Virus record (IMG/VR): IMGVR_UViG_3300042485_002742
Location: 1 to 31,802 of that record
Source: a virus
Length of the DNA: 31,802 bases
Reading direction: 5' to 3' (one strand)
The notes beneath the pieces were generated by a model. It was not told where the DNA came from. It saw nothing but the letters and a program-made list of their open reading frames with translations, and searched no databases. Below are positions 10,277 through 30,075 of this stretch, in pieces (the stretch's first letter is position 1; every line of letters starts with the position of its first letter). The position numbers and the translations under genes are program-made.

Positions 10277-10977
10277 TATTTAATCCTTAAATATTTGACT
10301 ATTTGTCTATGCCATTTAGAAAGAGTATCACTAGAAGATAATCTATTATATAAATGATGAATAAATCGATTATCACCTATATAAACACCGATGTGGTTGA
10401 TATGTCTTGAGCCAATTGAAAAAAGAATTATATCGCCTTCTTGTAATTCACTACCATCGATTTCACTAAATCCTAAATCATGATAATGTTGTTCGATATA
10501 ATGTGGGTTCCATTCTTCCCAATTAGCTGGTCTTGGATGAATACCAAAATTGATATTATAGTTATTTATATAATAATCACGTGCTAATGTAAAACAATCT
10601 GTTAATCCACTAACATAATGTCTACCTAATAATTCAGGTATATCTCGATTAATCCATAATATATCAGTAACTGATTCACCATCGCAATGAACAATACCAA
10701 ATGGAACATCATATGATTCAACAGTAATTAAGTCATTGTGACTTGGTGTACGTGGGTCATATCCAATAGCCCATTGAGTCATTGTGTGGCTATGGATAAT
10801 ACTAAAATCTTTATCTAATAATTGTTCAGTATCTTCTTTTGATATTCTGAAATTATTGATTGGGTCATCTGCAATATTATCTAATGGATAGAAGATATCA
10901 TCGATAATAACACCCACTGCTTCTTGTGGATAACACTTAATTATGTGTTCATGCATTTCTTTTATATTTGTTGCCAT
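10276..10977 (-). CDS. K: Tail tip protein K: JAB/MPN plus NlpC/P60 peptidase
   Basis: 233 residues with two hydrolase domains. The N-terminal JAMM/MPN domain shows Glu19, His62-x-His64 and Ser79/Asp82. The C-terminal NlpC/P60 domain has Cys128 ('DCFTLARDYY'), His195 ('NHIGVYIGDN') and His207/208. All expected catalytic and zinc residues are present, so both activities may be retained. Lambda gpK has the same layout; the P60 domain is thought to cut peptidoglycan stems during assembly or DNA entry. AGGAG precedes the ATG by about 7 nt, and a GATAAATA box lies 15 nt upstream of the start, so the K-I-J block probably has its own promoter. Confidence 0.92.
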   Translation of the reverse strand: MATNIKEMHEHIIKCYPQEAVGVIIDDIFYPLDNIADDPINNFRISKEDTEQLLDKDFSIIHSHTMTQWAIGYDPRTPSHNDLITVESYDVPFGIVHCDGESVTDILWINRDIPELLGRHYVSGLTDCFTLARDYYINNYNINFGIHPRPANWEEWNPHYIEQHYHDLGFSEIDGSELQEGDIILFSIGSRHINHIGVYIGDNRFIHHLYNRLSSSDTLSKWHRQIVKYLRIK

Positions 10978-22755: not shown

Positions 22756-22899
22756 TTATTTAACCTCCCTGGTCTTTGGTGATTTTCCCTTAATATATCC
22801 AATTGGCATTTCATTTGGTAAACAAATAACATTTTCATATGTTTCAGGATTATGATACCAATGTTTTCCAAATTGTGGATGTTTTTCTTTATCCATCAT
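22756..22899 (-). CDS. Small protein between terminase subunits with W-Y-H-N-P motif
   Basis: I prefer the start ATG 22899 or 22896, which overlaps the terminase small-subunit stop, giving 46-47 residues. The sequence 'KHWYHNPETYENVICLPNE' followed by 'MPIGYIKGKS' resembles a short motif ('W[YF]HNPET...P.G[YFW]I.G[RK]') found in various phage proteins, often beside homing endonuclease domains. No catalytic domain remains. It ends directly before the terminase large-subunit ATG. It could be a small DNA-binding accessory or a remnant of a mobile gene. Confidence 0.55.
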   Translation of the reverse strand: MMDKEKHPQFGKHWYHNPETYENVICLPNEMPIGYIKGKSPKTREVK

Positions 22900-23815: not shown

Positions 23816-24328
23816 TTAATTTTTACAATTATGTAATTGTTCAGCATTATCTCTAGCAATAATTGCATCATCTAATGTTTTATAATATCCAATATATTTC
23901 TTTCTACCATTAACTGTTATTGATACAATATAACTTTCTCTATTTTTTCTATAACATATATTTCTATGACCACTTAATGAATTTTTATGAACTTTTTTAT
24001 GGGTTTTCCCAGTATGAATATGTTCAACTGGTTTTTCAATATTTACTAATTCATGATAACTACTTACCAATTCTTCTTGATTAGGATGTTGGTAGTTTTT
24101 ACATATAGAGCAATGTTTTCTATAATAACCATTAATTTTAGTTATATCAATAACTTGGTTGACTACTTTACGCCCACATCCATTTAACATGCACTCATTA
24201 ATGATTGGATAAGGTTCTATCGTTATCGGAAGGGTAGTATTTTTAGTTGGGCTATCAGTTGGACTTTCTCTTATTGGGATTAGGATGCCATATTTTTTTA
24301 GTTCTTGTTTAAATTCTCTATCATCCAT
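23816..24328 (-). CDS. Zinc-site plus AP2/ERF-type DNA-binding protein (homing-endonuclease-like)
   Basis: 170 residues. Cys46-x4-Cys51 and Cys73-x2-Cys76 form the same zinc module as in the neighbouring 92-residue protein. Residues ~120-167 form an AP2 domain ('GHRNICYRKNRESYIVSITV', then 'NGRKKYIGYYKTLDDAIIAR'), with the conserved Arg/Tyr strand pattern and amphipathic helix. In phages AP2 domains usually occur with HNH homing nucleases; here I see no clear HNH triad in the N-terminal half, so it may be a degenerate or divergent member. GGATAATATAA precedes the ATG. A variant box CTAAATA lies about 45 nt upstream. Confidence 0.75.
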   Translation of the reverse strand: MDDREFKQELKKYGILIPIRESPTDSPTKNTTLPITIEPYPIINECMLNGCGRKVVNQVIDITKINGYYRKHCSICKNYQHPNQEELVSSYHELVNIEKPVEHIHTGKTHKKVHKNSLSGHRNICYRKNRESYIVSITVNGRKKYIGYYKTLDDAIIARDNAEQLHNCKN

Positions 24329-24383
24329 TTATATTATCCTGTGAATATTTAAAATCTATATATGTATTTAGTCCAGACGATAA

Positions 24384-24407
24384 AAAGCCCCATATTTCAG
24401 GGGCTTT
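24384..24407 (-). terminator. Rho-independent terminator
   Basis: AAAGCCCC/GGGGCTTT stem (24384-24391 with 24400-24407), 8-nt loop, T run on the minus strand. It ends the transcript of the 25.9-24.4 kb genes, 12 bp after the last stop codon. Confidence 0.88.
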
Positions 24408-24418
24408 ATGATTATTGA

Positions 24419-24616
24419 TTAACGTTGGTTGTAGAATCCATAATTATATTTTAATCCATCAGCACATACGATATTAGTAATCTTATTATTGACTGAGAAT
24501 ACTGCTTTAACGGCTGGATGTTTCCAATTATCTGGGATGGCACTACCTTTTAATACTTTGATATCATTTTCACTAACCATATACAATCGTTTAATGGTTT
24601 CTACATCGAATTTCAT
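24419..24616 (-). CDS. Hypothetical protein next to endonuclease VII
   Basis: 65 residues from ATG 24616, chosen because GGGAAATACT precedes it and it starts 14 nt after the nuclease stop. An upstream start at 24661 would overlap the nuclease gene and give an implausible 'QDRKRRRRD' head. The sequence 'MKFDVETIKRLYMVSENDIK' ... 'VFSVNNKITNIVCADGLKYN' is a small alpha/beta protein with no motif I recognise. Last gene before the terminator at 24384-24407. Confidence 0.6.
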   Translation of the reverse strand: MKFDVETIKRLYMVSENDIKVLKGSAIPDNWKHPAVKAVFSVNNKITNIVCADGLKYNYGFYNQR

Positions 24617-24629
24617 AGTATTTCCCAAG

Positions 24630-25010
24630 TTATCTCTTCTTCTTCTTTTTCTGTCTTGCAATCAATTTGTCAATCGGTGATTTATATGTTGGATGTAAGT
24701 AATTGCTCGTAATTTTCATATAATCATAAGCATTTTCTAATATTGTTTTTAATTGGTCATCTTGGATTTTATATCTGGTGATTGAGTTCTCAAGACGGCC
24801 GAGATAACTGTTGCAATGGCGATGTAGTACTGATCTTATGGCCCCATCGCTGTGCCGGTGATCCAATACTGGGCCATTAGTGGATGTTATATCAATAAAT
24901 TGATTACATAAGGCACAGAGATGGTTCTGTTTGAGTAACATTGCTTCTCTGAATGGCTTAATACCAGTGGTCTTTAATTTGATTTTGATATGTGGGAATT
25001 GATCGGTCAT
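24630..25010 (-). CDS. Endonuclease VII-like Holliday junction resolvase
   Basis: 126 residues. 'QNHLCALC' (Cys32, Cys35), 'GPVLDHRHSDGAIR' (Asp50-His51, His53) and 'VLHRHCNSYLGRLE' (Cys66-Asn67) reproduce the T4 gp49 / recombination endonuclease VII (His-Me finger) core. The first Cys of the second CxxC pair is His63 here, giving a Cys3His-type zinc site. T4 endo VII resolves branched DNA during packaging; the same role, or a homing activity, is possible. The C-terminal half is the helical dimerisation part, ending in a run of lysines. The ribosome binding site is weak and a GTAAATA variant lies directly upstream. Confidence 0.85.
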   Translation of the reverse strand: MTDQFPHIKIKLKTTGIKPFREAMLLKQNHLCALCNQFIDITSTNGPVLDHRHSDGAIRSVLHRHCNSYLGRLENSITRYKIQDDQLKTILENAYDYMKITSNYLHPTYKSPIDKLIARQKKKKKR

Positions 25011-25046
25011 AATGTATTTACAACCGATCTGTTAATGATGTATATT

Positions 25047-25487
25047 TTAATAATATGAAGGTTGTTGGTAAATGTAACAGGAATCTTTACCTGGTATTTT
25101 ATCAGGTATTGGTTGTTGACTTGCTTCTTCTTTAAACCAAAACCAGGTACCAATATTATATTTTTCAATATGGTGTTTTATGTCTTTCTGTATTTGTGTT
25201 TCTCGTTTTTCATACTTACTTAAGTATTGCTTATTGAATTCACTATAATTTATTGAAGGCAGATACCATAACTTTTCTACTTTATCCCATTTGATACCAT
25301 ATTTTTTGGCTTCGTCTTTATCATCATATGGTATTTTATAATATTGGCGAAAACAATAATCAGTGATGTCATCTTTAGATGCCCATTTCATAAATTTCCC
25401 ATCTTCATTAACCCAATAACCAGGTTTATAAAATGGATCGTAGTTCTCTTCTTTGACTTTCGGTGTTTTACCTATAATTAATGGCAT
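25047..25487 (-). CDS. DUF5710-containing phage protein
   Basis: 146 residues. 'YKIPYDDKDEAKKYGIKWD' then 'KVEKLWYLPS' is the DUF5710 signature (an element seen in DNA primase-like and mobile-element proteins, with the pattern 'VP...K..AK..GA.WD...K.WY.P'). Flanking parts are charged and Trp/Tyr-rich with no enzyme motif. AGAGATAAGAA precedes the ATG. It sits between an HNH gene and endonuclease VII, suggesting a DNA-handling accessory role, but this is inference from context. Confidence 0.65.
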   Translation of the reverse strand: MPLIIGKTPKVKEENYDPFYKPGYWVNEDGKFMKWASKDDITDYCFRQYYKIPYDDKDEAKKYGIKWDKVEKLWYLPSINYSEFNKQYLSKYEKRETQIQKDIKHHIEKYNIGTWFWFKEEASQQPIPDKIPGKDSCYIYQQPSYY

Positions 25488-25516
25488 TTCTTATCTCTTG
25501 TGTTAGTGTTAATGAA

Positions 25517-25993
25517 TCATAATGGTTTCTTATTTTCTAATAATGCTTGCTTTCTTCTTTCATAATCAAGTCTATTTCTTTCTTTCTTTTTCTCTCTACA
25601 TTTTCTAGTTCTTTCTGCATTAGTCATTGGTGGTTTCTTTTCTTTTCCTAATGCTTGCTTTCTTCTTTCATATGCACGTCTATTTTGTTCTTTCTTATCA
25701 ATAGGTGTTTTCTTTTCTTTTTTCTTTCTAGAAATAGTTCGTTTTAAATGATACAATGAATTACATCTATGTATTCCTTTATGGGTTAACCATTCAATAG
25801 GAATCATCCGTAATAATTTATGTGCTAATCTATGTTCCTTTGGTGTCAATAATGCAATATTCAAAACAATATCAGGACCACCATATTGCTTTGGAATTAT
25901 GTGATGAGCATCATATTCCCATGCATTACTTTTCATATTGATTCGATTGATACCTTTTTGCATTAATTCAAAATATAATTTGTAATAATTCAT
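25517..25993 (-). CDS. HNH endonuclease
   Basis: 158 residues from ATG 25993; GGAAGAT is upstream, and 'MNYYKLYFELMQKG' aligns with the start of the second HNH protein at 28976. The HNH core is 'YDAHHIIPKQYGG' (His30/His31), Asn45 and 'TPKEHRLAHKLL' (His54/His58). The C-terminal third is very basic and contains two near-identical copies of 'YERRKQAL' and a 'RTRKCREKKKERNR' segment, probably DNA-contacting. A 24-bp direct DNA repeat (25541-25564 and 25649-25672) encodes the duplicated part. Probably a free-standing homing nuclease; no intron is seen around it. Confidence 0.82.
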   Translation of the reverse strand: MNYYKLYFELMQKGINRINMKSNAWEYDAHHIIPKQYGGPDIVLNIALLTPKEHRLAHKLLRMIPIEWLTHKGIHRCNSLYHLKRTISRKKKEKKTPIDKKEQNRRAYERRKQALGKEKKPPMTNAERTRKCREKKKERNRLDYERRKQALLENKKPL

Positions 25994-26043
25994 ATCTTCC
26001 ATTGTTGTTTATTATTGAAGGGGTTATGTAAGGTGTTATACTG

Positions 26044-26183
26044 AGCAGGTAAACCTGCTATGGTCTCGCTATCGCTCTATGTTCGCTATCGCTCACATAT
26101 TCACGATACCTCACCCATGTTTTTTTATTTTCTTTTTTATTTTTTAAGAAACACATATGAGATACATGAGATACATGAGATAT
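26044..26183. repeat. Hairpin and short tandem repeats in a gene-free stretch
   Basis: AGCAGGT-AA-ACCTGCT (26044-26059) is a perfect 7-bp hairpin. TCGCTATCGCTC occurs twice (26066-26077 and 26083-26094). ATGAGATA[CT] occurs three times in tandem (26157-26183). No convincing gene lies between 25994 and 26268. A small plus-strand frame at 26300 (22 codons, AAGGAAA upstream) overlaps the RNA candidate and is unsupported. Confidence 0.6.
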
Positions 26184-26267
26184 ATGATTGATTATCTATT
26201 ATAAACAACTCATCAGGAGAGATGGATTATACAGAGTGGTATTATGCCCCCATAAAAATGGGAGCAT

Positions 26268-26722
26268 AAAAAAATATCAGTATTCGAAGGAAATACGTCA
26301 TGAGTAGAGTTACACTGATTACAGAGGCGGTTGGCCGATTACCTCGAAGTGCGTTTATGTTTCATTGAAAATATAACTTTGATCGCTACAAGTGATGCTT
26401 ATTGCACCCACGTCATTGTCTTATTTTCAAATATGTCCAACGGTGGCATTAGGAAAATACTCTACCATATTCCTAATACGTCTGGGAATTACCCAGTCTT
26501 TAGCCTTTTTTCATTTATTCAAATTTTCGAAATTGGTTGTACTGAAGGCGTATCCAATCATCATCCACAACACTAGGTGTGGGTAGTCGAAAAAGTCACT
26601 GCTTCTGCTCAGTTGTTGCGCTCAATGCGAAGAACATTCCATTGCCAACGGCACCTATCAAACCACCGGTGCGAGTGTATCAGAAGTTTTATTGCCTTAA
26701 TTTTGCCTGTCTATTGCCTAAT
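26268..26722 (-). ncRNA. Candidate ~455-nt structured RNA
   Basis: A perfect sigma70 promoter (26729-26757) reads into a gene-free stretch with many local inverted repeats. Pairs seen are GCACC/GGTGC (26651/26668), GTTG-CAATG/CATTG-CAAC (26615-26649), CTGGG/CCCAG (26482-26496), ATTAGGAA/TTCCTAAT (26448-26477), AATTT/AAATT (near 26522), and GAGG-CGG/CCG-CCTC (26324-26345). It ends with ATCAGT/ACTGAT (26313-26318 with 26275-26280) and a T run at 26268-26274, terminator-like. Open frames on both strands are short and overlap each other, with no family match and no ribosome binding site. The 5' end is inferred from the promoter. It does not show tmRNA, RNase P or group I intron signatures that I recognise. 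A degenerate host gene remnant is the main alternative, because 26511-26621 (minus) reads as a protein-like fragment. Confidence 0.45.
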
Positions 26723-26728
26723 CTTTGT

Positions 26729-26757
26729 ATTATACTAAATGTATTTATCACTGTCAA
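26729..26757 (-). promoter_or_regulatory. Perfect consensus sigma70 promoter driving the RNA candidate
   Basis: TTGACA (26752-26757), exactly 17 bp, TATAAT (26729-26734) on the minus strand; predicted start near 26722. A GATAAATA box (26742-26749) lies inside the spacer. No gene with a recognisable product lies downstream. Confidence 0.85.
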
Positions 26758-26804
26758 GTGATTTTAGTAAAATAATTTTTTTATTTTCTCTTATCCATCT
26801 AAAA

Positions 26805-26944
26805 CATCTTTTCCCGAGATGCTTCTGGCTGCGGGAAACAACCAGAAGAAGTTGAAAAGGAAACTTTCGTAATCAAGTCATGTTGCATCACTTGATACAT
26901 TTATTTATCATTTGTTGGTGAACTAACTCGCCCTAAAGGACGAG
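26805..26944 (-). other. Row of five hairpins at and beyond the 3' end of tnpB
   Basis: Consecutive stems: CATCT/AGATG (26805-26821), CTTCTGG/CCAGAAG (26822-26848), AAGTT/AACTT (26849-26866), TCAAGT/ACTTGA (26873-26895), and CTCG-CC/GG-CGAG (26927-26944). The last overlaps the tnpB stop and resembles the right-end hairpin of IS200/IS605 elements, where the omega RNA scaffold ends. The other four follow almost without gaps. Another GATAAATA box lies at 26902-26909. Tnp-associated guide RNA or phage regulatory RNA is inferred. Confidence 0.5.
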
Positions 26945-28114
26945 GCTTCCTGATTCATTGATACCTAGTAATTGACCAATCATTACTAATTGATCATACC
27001 GGGGATCTCCACAGGCATTAAGTCGGGCAGTTCCTGCCCTATCAATATTAATCGCGGCATTTAAGTCGCGATCTATTACTTCTCCACATGACTTGCAGTC
27101 ATATGTTCTACTTGATAACTCGATGTCTTGTATACTACCACAGTTTGAACAAGTCTTACTAGACGGGTAATAGCGGTCAATTATTACCGTTTTACCACCG
27201 TATAATTCAGACTTGTATTCGATAAACTGCCGAAGCATAGCAAATCCGTTATCTTTGATAATATGGCCATTCCATTGCTGTATTGATTTGACATTTAAAT
27301 CTTCCAATGAAATCACATCATAATCATCGACAAGCTGACGAGAAAGTTTATGAAAGTAATCTAATCGTTTTAGTTTAACACGATAATTCGCTTTAGTCAA
27401 CTTCAATTGAGCTTTTAAGTAATTATGACTACCTTTTTTCTTACGAGATAGCCCTCGTTGTAATTTCTTAATTTTCGCTTGGTTTTCACGAAGAAATTTA
27501 GGAATTACATAACGAATGCCATTACTTAATACGTATTCAGATGAATTCAGGTCAATACCAACTGAATTAGTAGTAGTAGTTCTCGTAGGTAATTTTGGTT
27601 TTGTACATGTAACTACAACAAACCAATTATGGGCTTCTTGTTTTATTTGACATGTCTTGAAATCACTAGGTAATGCCCTATGATAACGGCATTTAATCCA
27701 TCCGATATTAGGTATTTTAAATTTACCTGAATTGAAATCACAGTTTCTATCAGAATTGACCATAGCTAGGGTGAAGGATCCGTTAAAGTTTCGTTTTTTC
27801 TTAAACTTTGGAAATCCTTTAGTAGCTTTAGAATTCTTTTTAAAACTAGCTTTCAATGCCACATCAAGATAGCGGATAGTTTGTTGTAAGCTCGTTGATG
27901 GTGAAGATTGCAACCATTCAGTAGCTTTTTTCAAACTGGTTAAATCTGCACTGTTTTTATTGAAAAACCTGAACTTGTTATCGATCTGGTATTGTTGCAT
28001 TTCTTGATTTAAGAAATGATTCCAGACATAGCGATTGTTACCAACTACTTGGTTTAATAATTGGATCTGTTCCTGTGATGGGTACAATCGATATTTATAT
28101 TTCAGGTTTTGCAT
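26933..28114 (-). CDS. tnpB: TnpB RNA-guided endonuclease
   Basis: 393 residues, normal length. An N-terminal OrfB helix-turn-helix part ('YKYRLYPSQEQIQLLNQVVG') precedes the wedge region. The RuvC-like catalytic residues are all present: Asp188 ('VGIDLNSS'), Glu271 ('ISLEDLNV') and Asp350 ('DRDLNAAINI'). The zinc ribbon has Cys322/Cys325 and Cys340/Cys343 ('CSNCG', 'CKSCG'). The C-terminus is short. TnpB cuts DNA next to a short 5' motif, directed by an omega RNA made from the 3' end of its own gene and the flanking DNA. The predicted promoter at 28223-28251 gives a leader of about 100 nt. There is no clear Shine-Dalgarno before the ATG. Intact residues argue against a TldR-type repressor. 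Confidence 0.93.
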   Translation of the reverse strand: MQNLKYKYRLYPSQEQIQLLNQVVGNNRYVWNHFLNQEMQQYQIDNKFRFFNKNSADLTSLKKATEWLQSSPSTSLQQTIRYLDVALKASFKKNSKATKGFPKFKKKRNFNGSFTLAMVNSDRNCDFNSGKFKIPNIGWIKCRYHRALPSDFKTCQIKQEAHNWFVVVTCTKPKLPTRTTTTNSVGIDLNSSEYVLSNGIRYVIPKFLRENQAKIKKLQRGLSRKKKGSHNYLKAQLKLTKANYRVKLKRLDYFHKLSRQLVDDYDVISLEDLNVKSIQQWNGHIIKDNGFAMLRQFIEYKSELYGGKTVIIDRYYPSSKTCSNCGSIQDIELSSRTYDCKSCGEVIDRDLNAAINIDRAGTARLNACGDPRYDQLVMIGQLLGINESGSLVL

Positions 28115-28135
28115 TAGTTATTTAGTGGTAATTGC

Positions 28136-28164
28136 TTGACATGATTAAATTTTGGGTATATAAT
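28136..28164 (+). promoter_or_regulatory. Perfect consensus sigma70 promoter reading out of tnpB left end
   Basis: TTGACA (28136-28141), exactly 17 bp, TATAAT (28159-28164) on the plus strand, start near 28171. It points away from tnpB, through the left-end hairpin, and faces the tnpB promoter. The nearest plus-strand gene is at 29098. Confidence 0.82.
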
Positions 28165-28175
28165 TCGCCTTTCAT

Positions 28176-28195
28176 CCCCGCCTTAAAAGACAGGG
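28176..28195 (-). other. Left-end hairpin of the tnpB element
   Basis: CCCTGTCT-TTTA-AGGCGGGG on the minus strand forms an 8-bp stem with G-U/G-T pairs; on the plus strand two of these become mismatches, so the minus strand is the functional folded strand. Confidence 0.55.
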
Positions 28196-28222
28196 TATTA
28201 CGGCTCGATTGATAAAAACTGT

Positions 28223-28251
28223 ATTATAACAGATGACAAAAAATTTGTCAA
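28223..28251 (-). promoter_or_regulatory. Perfect consensus sigma70 promoter of tnpB
   Basis: TTGACA (28246-28251), exactly 17 bp, TATAAT (28223-28228) on the minus strand; predicted start near 28216, 100 nt upstream of the tnpB ATG. The spacer holds part of a 7-bp inverted repeat TGACAAA/TTTGTCA (28234-28250), a possible operator. Confidence 0.85.
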
Positions 28252-28288
28252 GCAAATCTTTTTCTCTTAATTCGCAGGGGTCCTCTCA

Positions 28289-28330
28289 TTCCTCTTCCTC
28301 CCCCCTCTCTCCTCCTCCACCTCTCCCCCC
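28289..28330. repeat. Polypyrimidine tract with G-run complement
   Basis: 42 bases of C/T on the plus strand with a single A (28319), followed by a purine-rich AAGGAAGGAAGGAAG (28337-28350 region). The complementary strand has several G runs (two of six G), so triplex or quadruplex structure is conceivable. Very unlike the AT-rich surroundings. Confidence 0.8.
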
Positions 28331-28370
28331 TACATAAGGAAGGAAGGAAGTACATCTATGTACTATTAGT

Positions 28371-28604
28371 GTGTAGCGGTTTTGTGTAAAATGGCTGCAG
28401 CCCAGTAAAATCAACAGTGTGTAGCGGTTTTTAGATGTGTAGCGGTTTTTAGATGTGTAGCGGTTTTTAGATGTGTAGCGGTTTTTAGATGTGTAGCGGT
28501 TTTGTGTAAAATGGCTGCAGCCCAGTAAAATCAACAGTGTGTAGCGGTTTTGTGTAAAATGGCTGCAGCCCAGTAAAATCAACAGTGTGTAGCGGTTTTT
28601 GGTA
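28371..28604. repeat. Eight-copy tandem repeat with 48-bp and 18-bp periods
   Basis: The core GTGTAGCGGTTTT starts at 28371, 28419, 28437, 28455, 28473, 28491, 28539 and 28587: spacings 48, 18, 18, 18, 18, 48, 48. The 18-bp unit is GTGTAGCGGTTTTTAGAT. The 48-bp unit adds an insert containing the palindrome GGCTGCAGCC flanked by GTAAAA on both sides. Copies are identical, so this is not a CRISPR array. Because all periods are multiples of three, long shadow frames cross it. No gene is credible in 28115-28655. Confidence 0.92.
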
Positions 28605-28655
28605 AAAAGAATTGTCAAGCACAAAAAAATCCATATTAAGAATAAATGTCAATAC

Positions 28656-28976
28656 TTATTTTTTTAATTTGAATCTAAAGTGTTCTAAATGAATCCGTTT
28701 TCTAACCCATTTCTTCATCTCTTTCATTAAAAAGTGCTTCTTTCTTTGATGGTAGAAAAAACATTCAACCGAAAACCATTGAGTTCCACCAAATATCTTG
28801 GCAAGTAATAGATGTGCAATGTAATGCTCTTTAAATGTCAAATTGACTAAATTAGGTGGTTCATCATTACCATTCATTGATCTAGGTATTATATGATGCC
28901 TCTCATAGTATTCATCAAGATATTCTCTTTTTTGTGCTTTAGTTATTAATTGATTGTAAATTTTAATGTAATTCAT
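28656..28976 (-). CDS. HNH endonuclease
   Basis: 106 residues from ATG 28976 (AAAGGCAG upstream; an ATG at 28988 is less well placed). The HNH core is 'YYERHHIIPRSMNG' (His27/His28), 'NLVNLTFKEHYIAHLLL' (Asn and His51/His55), the pattern of T4-like MobE/SegX-type free-standing HNH nucleases. The opening 'MNYIKIYNQLITK' is related to the HNH gene at 25993. The C-terminus is basic ('KKWVRKRIHLEHFRFKLKK'). A homing or mobile nuclease; no intron is seen. Confidence 0.82.
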   Translation of the reverse strand: MNYIKIYNQLITKAQKREYLDEYYERHHIIPRSMNGNDEPPNLVNLTFKEHYIAHLLLAKIFGGTQWFSVECFFYHQRKKHFLMKEMKKWVRKRIHLEHFRFKLKK

Positions 28977-29007
28977 CTGCCTTTCCATTGCCTATACCTT
29001 TAGTTAT

Positions 29008-29064
29008 CCAAAAAATGCTCTTTTTGGGCTATATGAGCCTGTTTTTAGCGTTCATGTATAAATA
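29008..29064 (+). promoter_or_regulatory. Divergent control region: two hairpins and a TATAAATA box
   Basis: CCAAAAA/TTTTTGG (29008-29027) is followed by GGCT/AGCC (29027-29038) with TGTTTTT after it on the plus strand, a weak terminator-like structure. TATAAATA (29057-29064), identical to the T4 late promoter octamer, lies 33 nt upstream of the plus-strand gene start at 29098. Confidence 0.45.
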
Positions 29065-29097
29065 CATATGTAACAAAGACAAATGGAGGTTACAACA

Positions 29098-29472
29098 ATG
29101 GAACTACTAAAATTAACTAAATCAGAATCTGCTAAACTACCAAGAACTCATGTTCACCCACGTATGACTAAAAAAGAAGTAAATTTTTACAGACAGCAAT
29201 TTCCTGAAGTTGACATAAATTATGCCTTGACTCGCTTTACCTATCAGCGCAGACATGCTGAGGTCATTCGCGGTGTTAAATTTGAAATGTCATTTGAACA
29301 ATGGCTGCAATTATGGTTAGATAGCGGACACTGGGATAAAAGAGGACGTGGTGCAGAAAACTATTGTCTCGCGAGAAACAAAGATGAAGGTGCGTATGCT
29401 GTTGATAATGTTTACATTGCTACTAATAGCCAGAATATTAAAGATAGATACATTAATAAGAAATTGGTATAA
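29098..29472 (+). CDS. Conserved phage protein (GRG...YCLAR family)
   Basis: 124 residues from ATG 29098; GGAGG (29085-29089) is its ribosome binding site, which excludes the in-frame ATG at 29083. The C-terminal half 'WDKRGRGAENYCLARNKDEG' then 'AYAVDNVYIATNSQNIKD' is a conserved phage/mobile-element motif ('RGR....Y..AR..D.G.Y...NV.I.T...N') often seen in proteins near homing nucleases. It resembles the DNA-recognition part of HNH-family proteins but lacks a visible catalytic triad. First gene of a two-gene plus-strand unit with the GIY-YIG gene. Function unknown. Confidence 0.68.
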   Translation: MELLKLTKSESAKLPRTHVHPRMTKKEVNFYRQQFPEVDINYALTRFTYQRRHAEVIRGVKFEMSFEQWLQLWLDSGHWDKRGRGAENYCLARNKDEGAYAVDNVYIATNSQNIKDRYINKKLV

Positions 29473-29484
29473 TAGAGATTTTAA

Positions 29485-30075
29485 ATGGAATTAATTATGA
29501 CAGAAACATATCTTTACATCAAACAGCACAGTATAACTGGAATGAAATATTTCGGTAAAACTACTAGAGACCCATACAAATATAATGGTAGTGGTAAACA
29601 TTGGTTGCGCCATATTAAGAAACACGGTAAGGAACACGTAAAAACCATTTGGTGTAAATTATTTACTGATATAGATGAATTAGAAAGAACTGCTATTGCC
29701 ATGAGTGAGATGTATGATGTGGTAGATAGTGAATATTGGGCTAATTTAATTAATGAAAATGGATTAGATGGTAATCCATCTGGCATTAATTTTTCTGAAG
29801 AAACCCGTGTTAAATTGAGTATTGCGATGAAAGGTGAAAAAAATCATATGTATGGAAAGACTGGTATTTTATCTCCTAATTATGGAAAAAACCATTCAGA
29901 AGAATCACGTGCTAAAATTAGTATTGCGATGAATGGAAAAAACCATTCAGAAGAATCACGTGCTAAAATGAGCAATCGTGCTAAATCAAGAACTATTACT
30001 ACATGTCCTCATTGTAATAAATCAGGAAGCACTAATATGAAGCGTTATCACTTCGATAATTGTAAATTTAAGTAA
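29485..30075 (+). CDS. GIY-YIG homing endonuclease with NUMOD3 repeats
   Basis: 196 residues, or 192 if ATG 29497 is used (GGA is 8 nt upstream; both starts are plausible). The GIY-YIG core is 'YLYIKQHSITGMKYFGKTT' with the downstream 'YNGSGKHWLRHIKKHG'. Three NUMOD3-type helices ('FSEETRVKLSIAMKG', then 'HSEESRAKISIAMNG', then 'HSEESRAKMS') are DNA-binding repeats. The end is a zinc finger 'CPHC...H...NC'. A 37-bp perfect direct repeat (29882-29918, 29933-29969) shows that one NUMOD3 unit was duplicated recently. Probably a free-standing homing nuclease. Followed directly by a strong terminator. Confidence 0.88.
   Translation: MELIMTETYLYIKQHSITGMKYFGKTTRDPYKYNGSGKHWLRHIKKHGKEHVKTIWCKLFTDIDELERTAIAMSEMYDVVDSEYWANLINENGLDGNPSGINFSEETRVKLSIAMKGEKNHMYGKTGILSPNYGKNHSEESRAKISIAMNGKNHSEESRAKMSNRAKSRTITTCPHCNKSGSTNMKRYHFDNCKFK

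What the first reader, a model, noticed from the sequence alone, without database searches (positions are those of the whole stretch)
28371..28604. Composite tandem repeat with 48/18/18/18/18/48/48 periods
Eight identical GTGTAGCGGTTTT cores have two alternating unit lengths, the long one carrying the palindrome GGCTGCAGCC. Perfect identity implies recent amplification or strong constraint. It sits in a GC-rich, gene-free gap next to a pyrimidine tract and promoters. Possible roles: iterons of a replication origin, a repressor array, a packaging or recombination site, or a mini-satellite.
Basis: partly seen in the sequence, partly recalled or inferred. Interest (0 to 1): 0.58.

Follow-up and report, generated by a model that had tools for sequence, protein, structure and literature searches.

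The report
Young tandem repeat in a phage
A bacterial virus carries a short, perfectly repeated stretch of non-coding DNA beside a jumping gene; it is real but most likely a recent copying accident rather than a new kind of genetic device.

Summary
Eight identical GTGTAGCGGTTTT cores start at 28371, 28419, 28437, 28455, 28473, 28491, 28539 and 28587, with spacings 48/18/18/18/18/48/48; the last core ends at 28599. The order is long, four short, long, long, so the units do not alternate. The window is a linear IMG/VR phage contig (siphovirus-type terminase, capsid and tail genes). The array lies between a truncated HNH homing-endonuclease gene (28988-28656, minus) and a strong consensus promoter whose start point is occupied by a mobile tnpB-only IS605-type element (26918-28217). 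No other copy of the array was found, but no relative contig covers this region. It fails most iteron features I could test: no initiator gene among the proteins scanned, no perfect DnaA box nearby, no helical phasing. RNA folding shows no signal. One frame is open across the array, but its product has no significant family match. Best reading: a young minisatellite made by slippage or unequal recombination in an insertion-prone intergenic zone. An upstream regulatory array for the adjacent promoter remains possible. One curiosity: the core matches the loop and 3' arm of a small palindrome common in Alphaproteobacteria, but the palindrome is absent here. Interest is low to modest.

The parts
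28371..28418 (+). Long unit A1 (48 bp): core + GTGTAAAATGGCTGCAGCCCAGTAAAATCAACAGT
28419..28490 (+). Four short units B1-B4 (18 bp each): GTGTAGCGGTTTTTAGAT
28491..28586 (+). Long units A2 and A3 (48 bp each), identical to A1
28587..28599 (+). Eighth, terminal core without a full unit
28281..28333 (+). Polypyrimidine (C-rich, G-poor) tract, purine/G-rich on the minus strand
28349..28364 (.). Small palindrome AGTACATCTATGTACT between pyrimidine tract and array
   Evidence: read directly
28223..28251 (-). Perfect sigma-70 promoter with TG before the -10 (TTGACA-17-TATAAT), pointing left, away from the array
26918..28217 (-). tnpB-only IS605-type element, 1300 bp (TnpB ORF 28114-26933); lies outside the array
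28656..28988 (-). Truncated HNH homing-endonuclease ORF (110 aa against 222 and 224 aa in two homologues), ends 56 bp to the right of the array
28245..28254 (+). TTGTCAAGCA, left copy of a 10-bp direct repeat flanking tract + array (it overlaps the promoter's -35)
   Evidence: such a repeat is found at 122 of 4479 placements (2.7%)
28612..28621 (+). TTGTCAAGCA, right copy of the 10-bp direct repeat

Best explanation
The array is a young non-coding minisatellite in the genome of a siphovirus-type phage. It sits in an intergenic zone already opened up by homing endonucleases and an IS. Two unit lengths sharing one 13-14 bp core arose by replication slippage or unequal recombination between core copies. 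The perfect identity of all copies means recent expansion or homogenisation, and copy number probably varies between individual phages. Shown: the array, its anatomy, the truncated neighbour gene, the IS boundary and the adjacent perfect promoter. Inferred: the slippage origin, the young age and the lack of a required function.
For: All 8 cores, the 4 short units and the 3 long units are letter-identical. The array was not found anywhere else: the exact and gapped patterns drew 0 hits in IMG/VR; blastn found nothing in 50,697 phage records, and against plasmids nothing at E 1e-5 and only short matches at E about 5; nothing in E. coli genomes. Whole-genome searches with 251 bp gave only 20-32 nt matches: 5 of 292, 2 of 300 and 0 of 296 genomes, 0 of 4 and 0 of 5, and 0 of 13 viral records with the 443-bp gap; the 251-bp search does ring in the window's own record. 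The neighbouring HNH ORF has lost its C-terminal half and an IS sits on the other side, as expected in a region tolerant of insertions. Neither strand folds better than shuffles (z 0.76 and 0.57), and the ORF across it has no family match better than E 0.012.
Against: Such strong arrays are not routine here: 0 of 29 related or comparison viral loci (270,408 bases) carry a TRF row of score 150 or more, the best being 131. The array lies just upstream of a perfect promoter, where a functional array would be expected. The core matches a repeated alphaproteobacterial motif, which slippage alone does not predict. No population data exist to show instability.
Confidence: 0.57

Rival explanations
1. 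The array is a cis-regulatory binding array (repressor or activator sites) controlling the strong leftward promoter 28251-28223, which before the IS inserted would have driven a leftward transcript, perhaps a small RNA, ahead of the Polynucleobacter-1 RNA.
For: Perfect TTGACA-17-TATAAT with TG before the -10, 119 bp from the array. All three perfect sigma-70 promoters of the window lie at 26.7-28.3 kb, two of them pointing left. A structured stretch lies downstream of the IS. Unexplained intergenic direct repeats exist in T1-like phages (PMC11447400, passages read).
Against: Sites are not on one face of the helix (mean vector 0.06 at 10.5 bp). The nearest core is 119 bp from the -35. No regulator gene was identified among the neighbours scanned. 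No conservation could be shown.
Confidence: 0.2
2. The array is part of a replication origin: iterons for a phage initiator.
For: Direct repeats of 18 bp next to an AT-rich stretch (60-bp window at 28620: 83% A+T, 99th percentile).
Against: No replication initiator among the ORFs scanned (not every ORF was scanned). The only perfect DnaA box is at 10925, 17 kb away; the nearest one-mismatch boxes are at 29004, 29400 and 27080. No helical phasing. The contig is probably incomplete, so the replication genes may simply be missing.
Confidence: 0.07
3. The copy number or unit order is an assembly artefact of short reads over a repeat.
For: The whole array (229 bp) is longer than a typical short read, and the record comes from a virus collection built largely on metagenome contigs (recalled). 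A 42-bp phage minisatellite in CL31 could not be assembled by the usual methods and needed Sanger sequencing (PMC8002715, passages read).
Against: Flanks are unique and continuous, and an assembly graph with long k-mers could resolve 18- and 48-bp units (inference). An artefact would not create the two unit types or the terminal core.
Confidence: 0.08
4. The array or its surroundings came in as a small insertion (about 360 bp) bounded by the 10-bp direct repeat TTGTCAAGCA, possibly derived from a host palindromic repeat whose core it shares.
For: 10-bp direct repeat at 28245 and 28612 with TCTTTTT in inverted orientation just inside each end. The core is 14-16 nt identical to the loop and 3' arm of an alphaproteobacterial palindrome: among the genome stretches found with the core, 46 copies carry AAAAG directly before it, against 119 core hits in all.
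Against: A 10-bp direct repeat turns up at 122 of 4479 similar placements in this window (2.7%). It overlaps a promoter -35 motif. No second copy of the insertion is known, and the palindrome arms are absent from the array.
Confidence: 0.08

Closest known systems
Phage minisatellites (for example the 42-bp repeats in gene clg55 of corynephage CL31, PMC8002715)
   Same: Tandem units of tens of bp in a phage; copy number varied between plaques (4, 6, 8) in CL31 (passages read)
   Different: CL31's lies inside a minor tail protein gene; this one is non-coding, with two unit lengths and no variation data
Intergenic 21-nt direct repeats of T1-like phage TLS (PMC11447400)
   Same: Repeated short motifs in phage intergenic DNA; function unknown (passages read)
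   Different: TLS has 18 copies dispersed upstream of many genes; here all 8 are in one tandem array and the core is found nowhere else in the window
Iterons of lambda-type origins (four tandem repeats in the replication gene, as described in PMC11447400)
   Same: Tandem short direct repeats
   Different: No initiator gene found, no phasing, not inside a replication gene
Small palindromic intergenic elements of Alphaproteobacteria (seen; family name not established by any search)
   Same: Shares AGTGTGTAGCGGTTTT, the loop and 3' arm
   Different: The array has no paired arms, and the repeats are tandem, not dispersed

Membership tests
Minisatellite / tandem repeat | Head-to-tail copies of a 10-100 bp unit, well above chance | tested here: met
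   TRF scores 172 and 222; 8 exact cores with 0.0002 expected
Minisatellite / tandem repeat | Copy number varies between individuals | not testable with these tools
   No reads held and no relative contig covers the array
Iteron origin | Initiator (Rep/O-type) gene nearby | tested here: not met
   None among the neighbouring or other ORFs scanned; contig probably incomplete and not all ORFs scanned
Iteron origin | DnaA box close by | tested here: not met
   Only perfect box at 10925; near the array only one-mismatch boxes at 27080, 29004, 29400
Iteron origin | AT-rich unwinding region next to the repeats | tested here: met
   83% A+T over 60 bp at 28620, 99th percentile
Iteron origin | Helical phasing of repeats | tested here: not met
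   Mean vector 0.06-0.12 for 10.4-10.6 bp per turn
Operator / enhancer array | Located at a promoter | tested here: met
   Perfect promoter 28251-28223 (minus), 119 bp away
Operator / enhancer array | Specific binding protein | not testable with these tools
   Needs a binding assay
Structured non-coding RNA | Folds better than shuffled sequence | tested here: not met
   z 0.76 (+) and 0.57 (-); no Rfam match inside the array
Protein-coding repeat | Open frame whose product matches a family | tested here: inconclusive
   One of six frames is open across the array; best PHROG E 0.012
Alphaproteobacterial palindromic element | Core AAAAGTGTGNNGCGGTTTT flanked by complementary arms | tested here: not met
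   Core part present, arms absent
IS605-type tnpB element | Array lies inside the mobile element | tested here: not met
   The shared element ends at 28217; L145-L147 and L149 carry it (L149 in part) without the array

The most novel reading that the evidence does not exclude
The array is a decoy or regulatory array: a phage has amplified eight copies of a core (TGTGTAGCGGTTTT) that some bacteria carry as the loop of a widespread intergenic palindrome, beside a very strong promoter, so that it captures or responds to a host factor that recognises that core.
Probability: 0.06. Interest if true: 0.6.

Novelty: new member of a known kind. Interest (0 to 1): 0.2.

Why it matters
If it is a minisatellite, it is one more example of tandem repeats in phage genomes and a possible marker for following strains of this phage in its habitat. 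If it binds a protein, it would be an unusual composite operator array. Its place beside an IS that has landed at the start point of a perfect promoter makes the locus a small case study of insertion in phage intergenic DNA.

Tried and rejected
Searches for other copies with exact, gapped and long-unit patterns in IMG/VR: 0, 0 and 0 hits. A relaxed core pair gave 26 loci. On inspection most are repeats in multiples of 3 nt that look like coding low-complexity repeats, and none has the 18/48 architecture. L164 looked non-coding at first but, read by eye, both cores lie in one open frame (not run through a translator).

Origin inside the IS: rejected, because the shared element ends at 28217. 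Coding repeat: not supported. RNA element: not supported. Insertion with target-site duplication: kept only as a weak rival.

Host: an alphaproteobacterial host was not tested. A Burkholderiales host is hinted at only by the Polynucleobacter-1 RNA (2 of 300 genomes over the cut-off). The terminase search found nothing in the 4 genomes of one such genus.

Relatives through the neighbouring genes: the endonuclease VII-like protein gave 6 distant loci and the protein at 29083-29472 gave none; neither brought a contig with the array.

All 118 loci returned were examined: 117 have one core and one (L092, Mesorhizobium) has two, 60 bp apart, both inside the palindrome.

The paper on tandem repeats in Brevibacterium phages is not held and was seen only as cited in PMC8002715. 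The other paper searches gave no report of this array in their listings; they were not searches for its sequence.

Full report
What was claimed and what is there. The claim is accurate to the base for the cores: eight copies of GTGTAGCGGTTTT at 28371-28599 with spacings 48/18/18/18/18/48/48. The true order is A-B-B-B-B-A-A followed by a lone core, where A is 48 bp and B is 18 bp. All A copies are identical, and so are all B copies. In all eight copies the shared part is really 14 nt, TGTGTAGCGGTTTT. Allowing three mismatches, four more sites turn up elsewhere in the window, which is chance level. The array is 42% G+C in a 32% window, next to a 53-nt pyrimidine-rich tract at 28281-28333.

The genome. 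The window is a linear IMG/VR virus record of 31,802 bases. Its proteins match siphovirus-type structural families: terminase large and small subunits, major head protein, tail tube, tape measure, minor tail and tail fibre proteins. In the 15 rows listed, the terminase is 37-39% identical to those of 40-56-kb phages of Salmonella, Escherichia, Citrobacter, Edwardsiella, Serratia and Pasteurella and of a cyanophage. Three contigs are 99-100% identical to the window's terminase and 99.0-99.95% over their shared DNA (L127, L128, L129), but their matches stop at 22803, 23945 and 24340. No relative covers the array, so conservation cannot be judged. This is the main limit of the study.

Neighbours. 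Right of the array, an HNH homing-endonuclease ORF (28988-28656, minus) matches only the first half of its family: two homologues of 222 and 224 aa align over their residues 1-95 and 1-102, and the rest is missing at that place. Left of the array lies a 1300-bp tnpB-only IS605-type element, 26918-28217. The same element, 97.6% identical, sits in a different context in three larger contigs (L145-L147), and its first 292 bp are 100% identical in L149, which has that same other context. In those contexts the array is absent, so the array does not belong to the IS. A perfect promoter (TTGACA-17-TATAAT with TG before the -10) lies at 28251-28223 on the minus strand, between array and IS. Its expected start point, about 28216, falls within a base or two of the IS edge; this last point is inference.

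Tests of function. Iterons: no initiator among the ORFs scanned, no perfect DnaA box near, no helical phasing; only an AT-rich neighbour is met. RNA: neither strand folds better than shuffles, and Rfam finds nothing in the array. Protein: one minus-strand frame stays open because both periods are multiples of three; its product has no match better than E 0.012. Operator array: the promoter is near, but no binding factor is known and the sites are out of phase.

Is it unusual? In 29 viral loci fetched for other reasons (270,408 bases), no TRF row reaches a score of 150; the window has two, both from this array. So it is uncommon, though 29 loci are a small sample and some of them are near-duplicates.

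Relatives of the array. None was found in IMG/VR by three patterns, in phage, plasmid or E. coli collections, or in sampled genomes: 5 of 292, 2 of 300, 0 of 296, 0 of 4 and 0 of 5 genomes gave a match at E 0.01 or better, all of 20-32 nt. The search does find the window itself.

A curiosity. A strict filter marks 37 of the 119 as palindrome-like, and the form AAAAG-TGTGTAG-CGGTTTT is seen 46 times in the same stretches. These are mostly Bradyrhizobium, Mesorhizobium and other Alphaproteobacteria: small intergenic palindromes of the form arm-AAAAGTGTGTAGCGGTTTT-arm. The phage array has AACAGTGTGTAGCGGTTTT at its long-unit junctions, one letter from that core, but without the arms. Since these loci were chosen by the 14-mer itself, the resemblance is partly built in. 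It may be coincidence, and I rate a functional link at a few per cent.

Conclusion. The most likely explanation is a recently expanded non-coding minisatellite in an insertion-prone stretch of a phage. Regulatory use is the main rival. The habitat is not known: the only hint is the Polynucleobacter-1 RNA in the window, a family listed for Burkholderiales and fresh water/estuary (PMC2864571, one table passage read); no sample record was seen.

Noticed in passing
window 26521-26677 (-): A Polynucleobacter-1 RNA (RF01718, 63.3 bits, cut-off 37) in a phage genome, 52 bp downstream of a perfect sigma-70 promoter (26757-26729, -). The family is listed as Burkholderiales, fresh water/estuary (PMC2864571). 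Found over the cut-off in 2 of 300 genomes of one order.
   Followed up: partly
window 26790-26917 (-): Stretch just downstream of the IS right end that folds into two hairpins (-30.4 kcal/mol, no shuffle control run); it could be a small RNA once driven by the promoter at 28251 before the IS inserted.
   Followed up: partly
window 26918-28217: tnpB-only IS605-type element shared at 97.6% with larger viral contigs L145-L147 (51-94 kb) in another context, so it seems to have moved between phages; it sits at the start point of a perfect promoter.
   Followed up: yes
window 28136-28164 (+): A perfect sigma-70 promoter inside the IS left end pointing out of the IS, towards the pyrimidine tract and the array.
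   Followed up: no
window 28281-28333 (+): C-rich, G-poor tract that resembles a Rho utilisation site on the + strand (resemblance recalled, not tested) and a G-rich purine run on the - strand.
   Followed up: no
window 23816-30075: Cluster of nuclease genes: HNH, endonuclease VII-like, two HNH homing endonucleases, a NUMOD3 homing endonuclease. The close relative L129 departs from the window at 24340 into a sequence 76% like the NUMOD3 gene.
   Followed up: partly
L092 and other Alphaproteobacteria loci: Small intergenic palindromes with variable complementary arms around a conserved core of the kind AAAAGTGNNNNCGGTTTT.
   Followed up: partly
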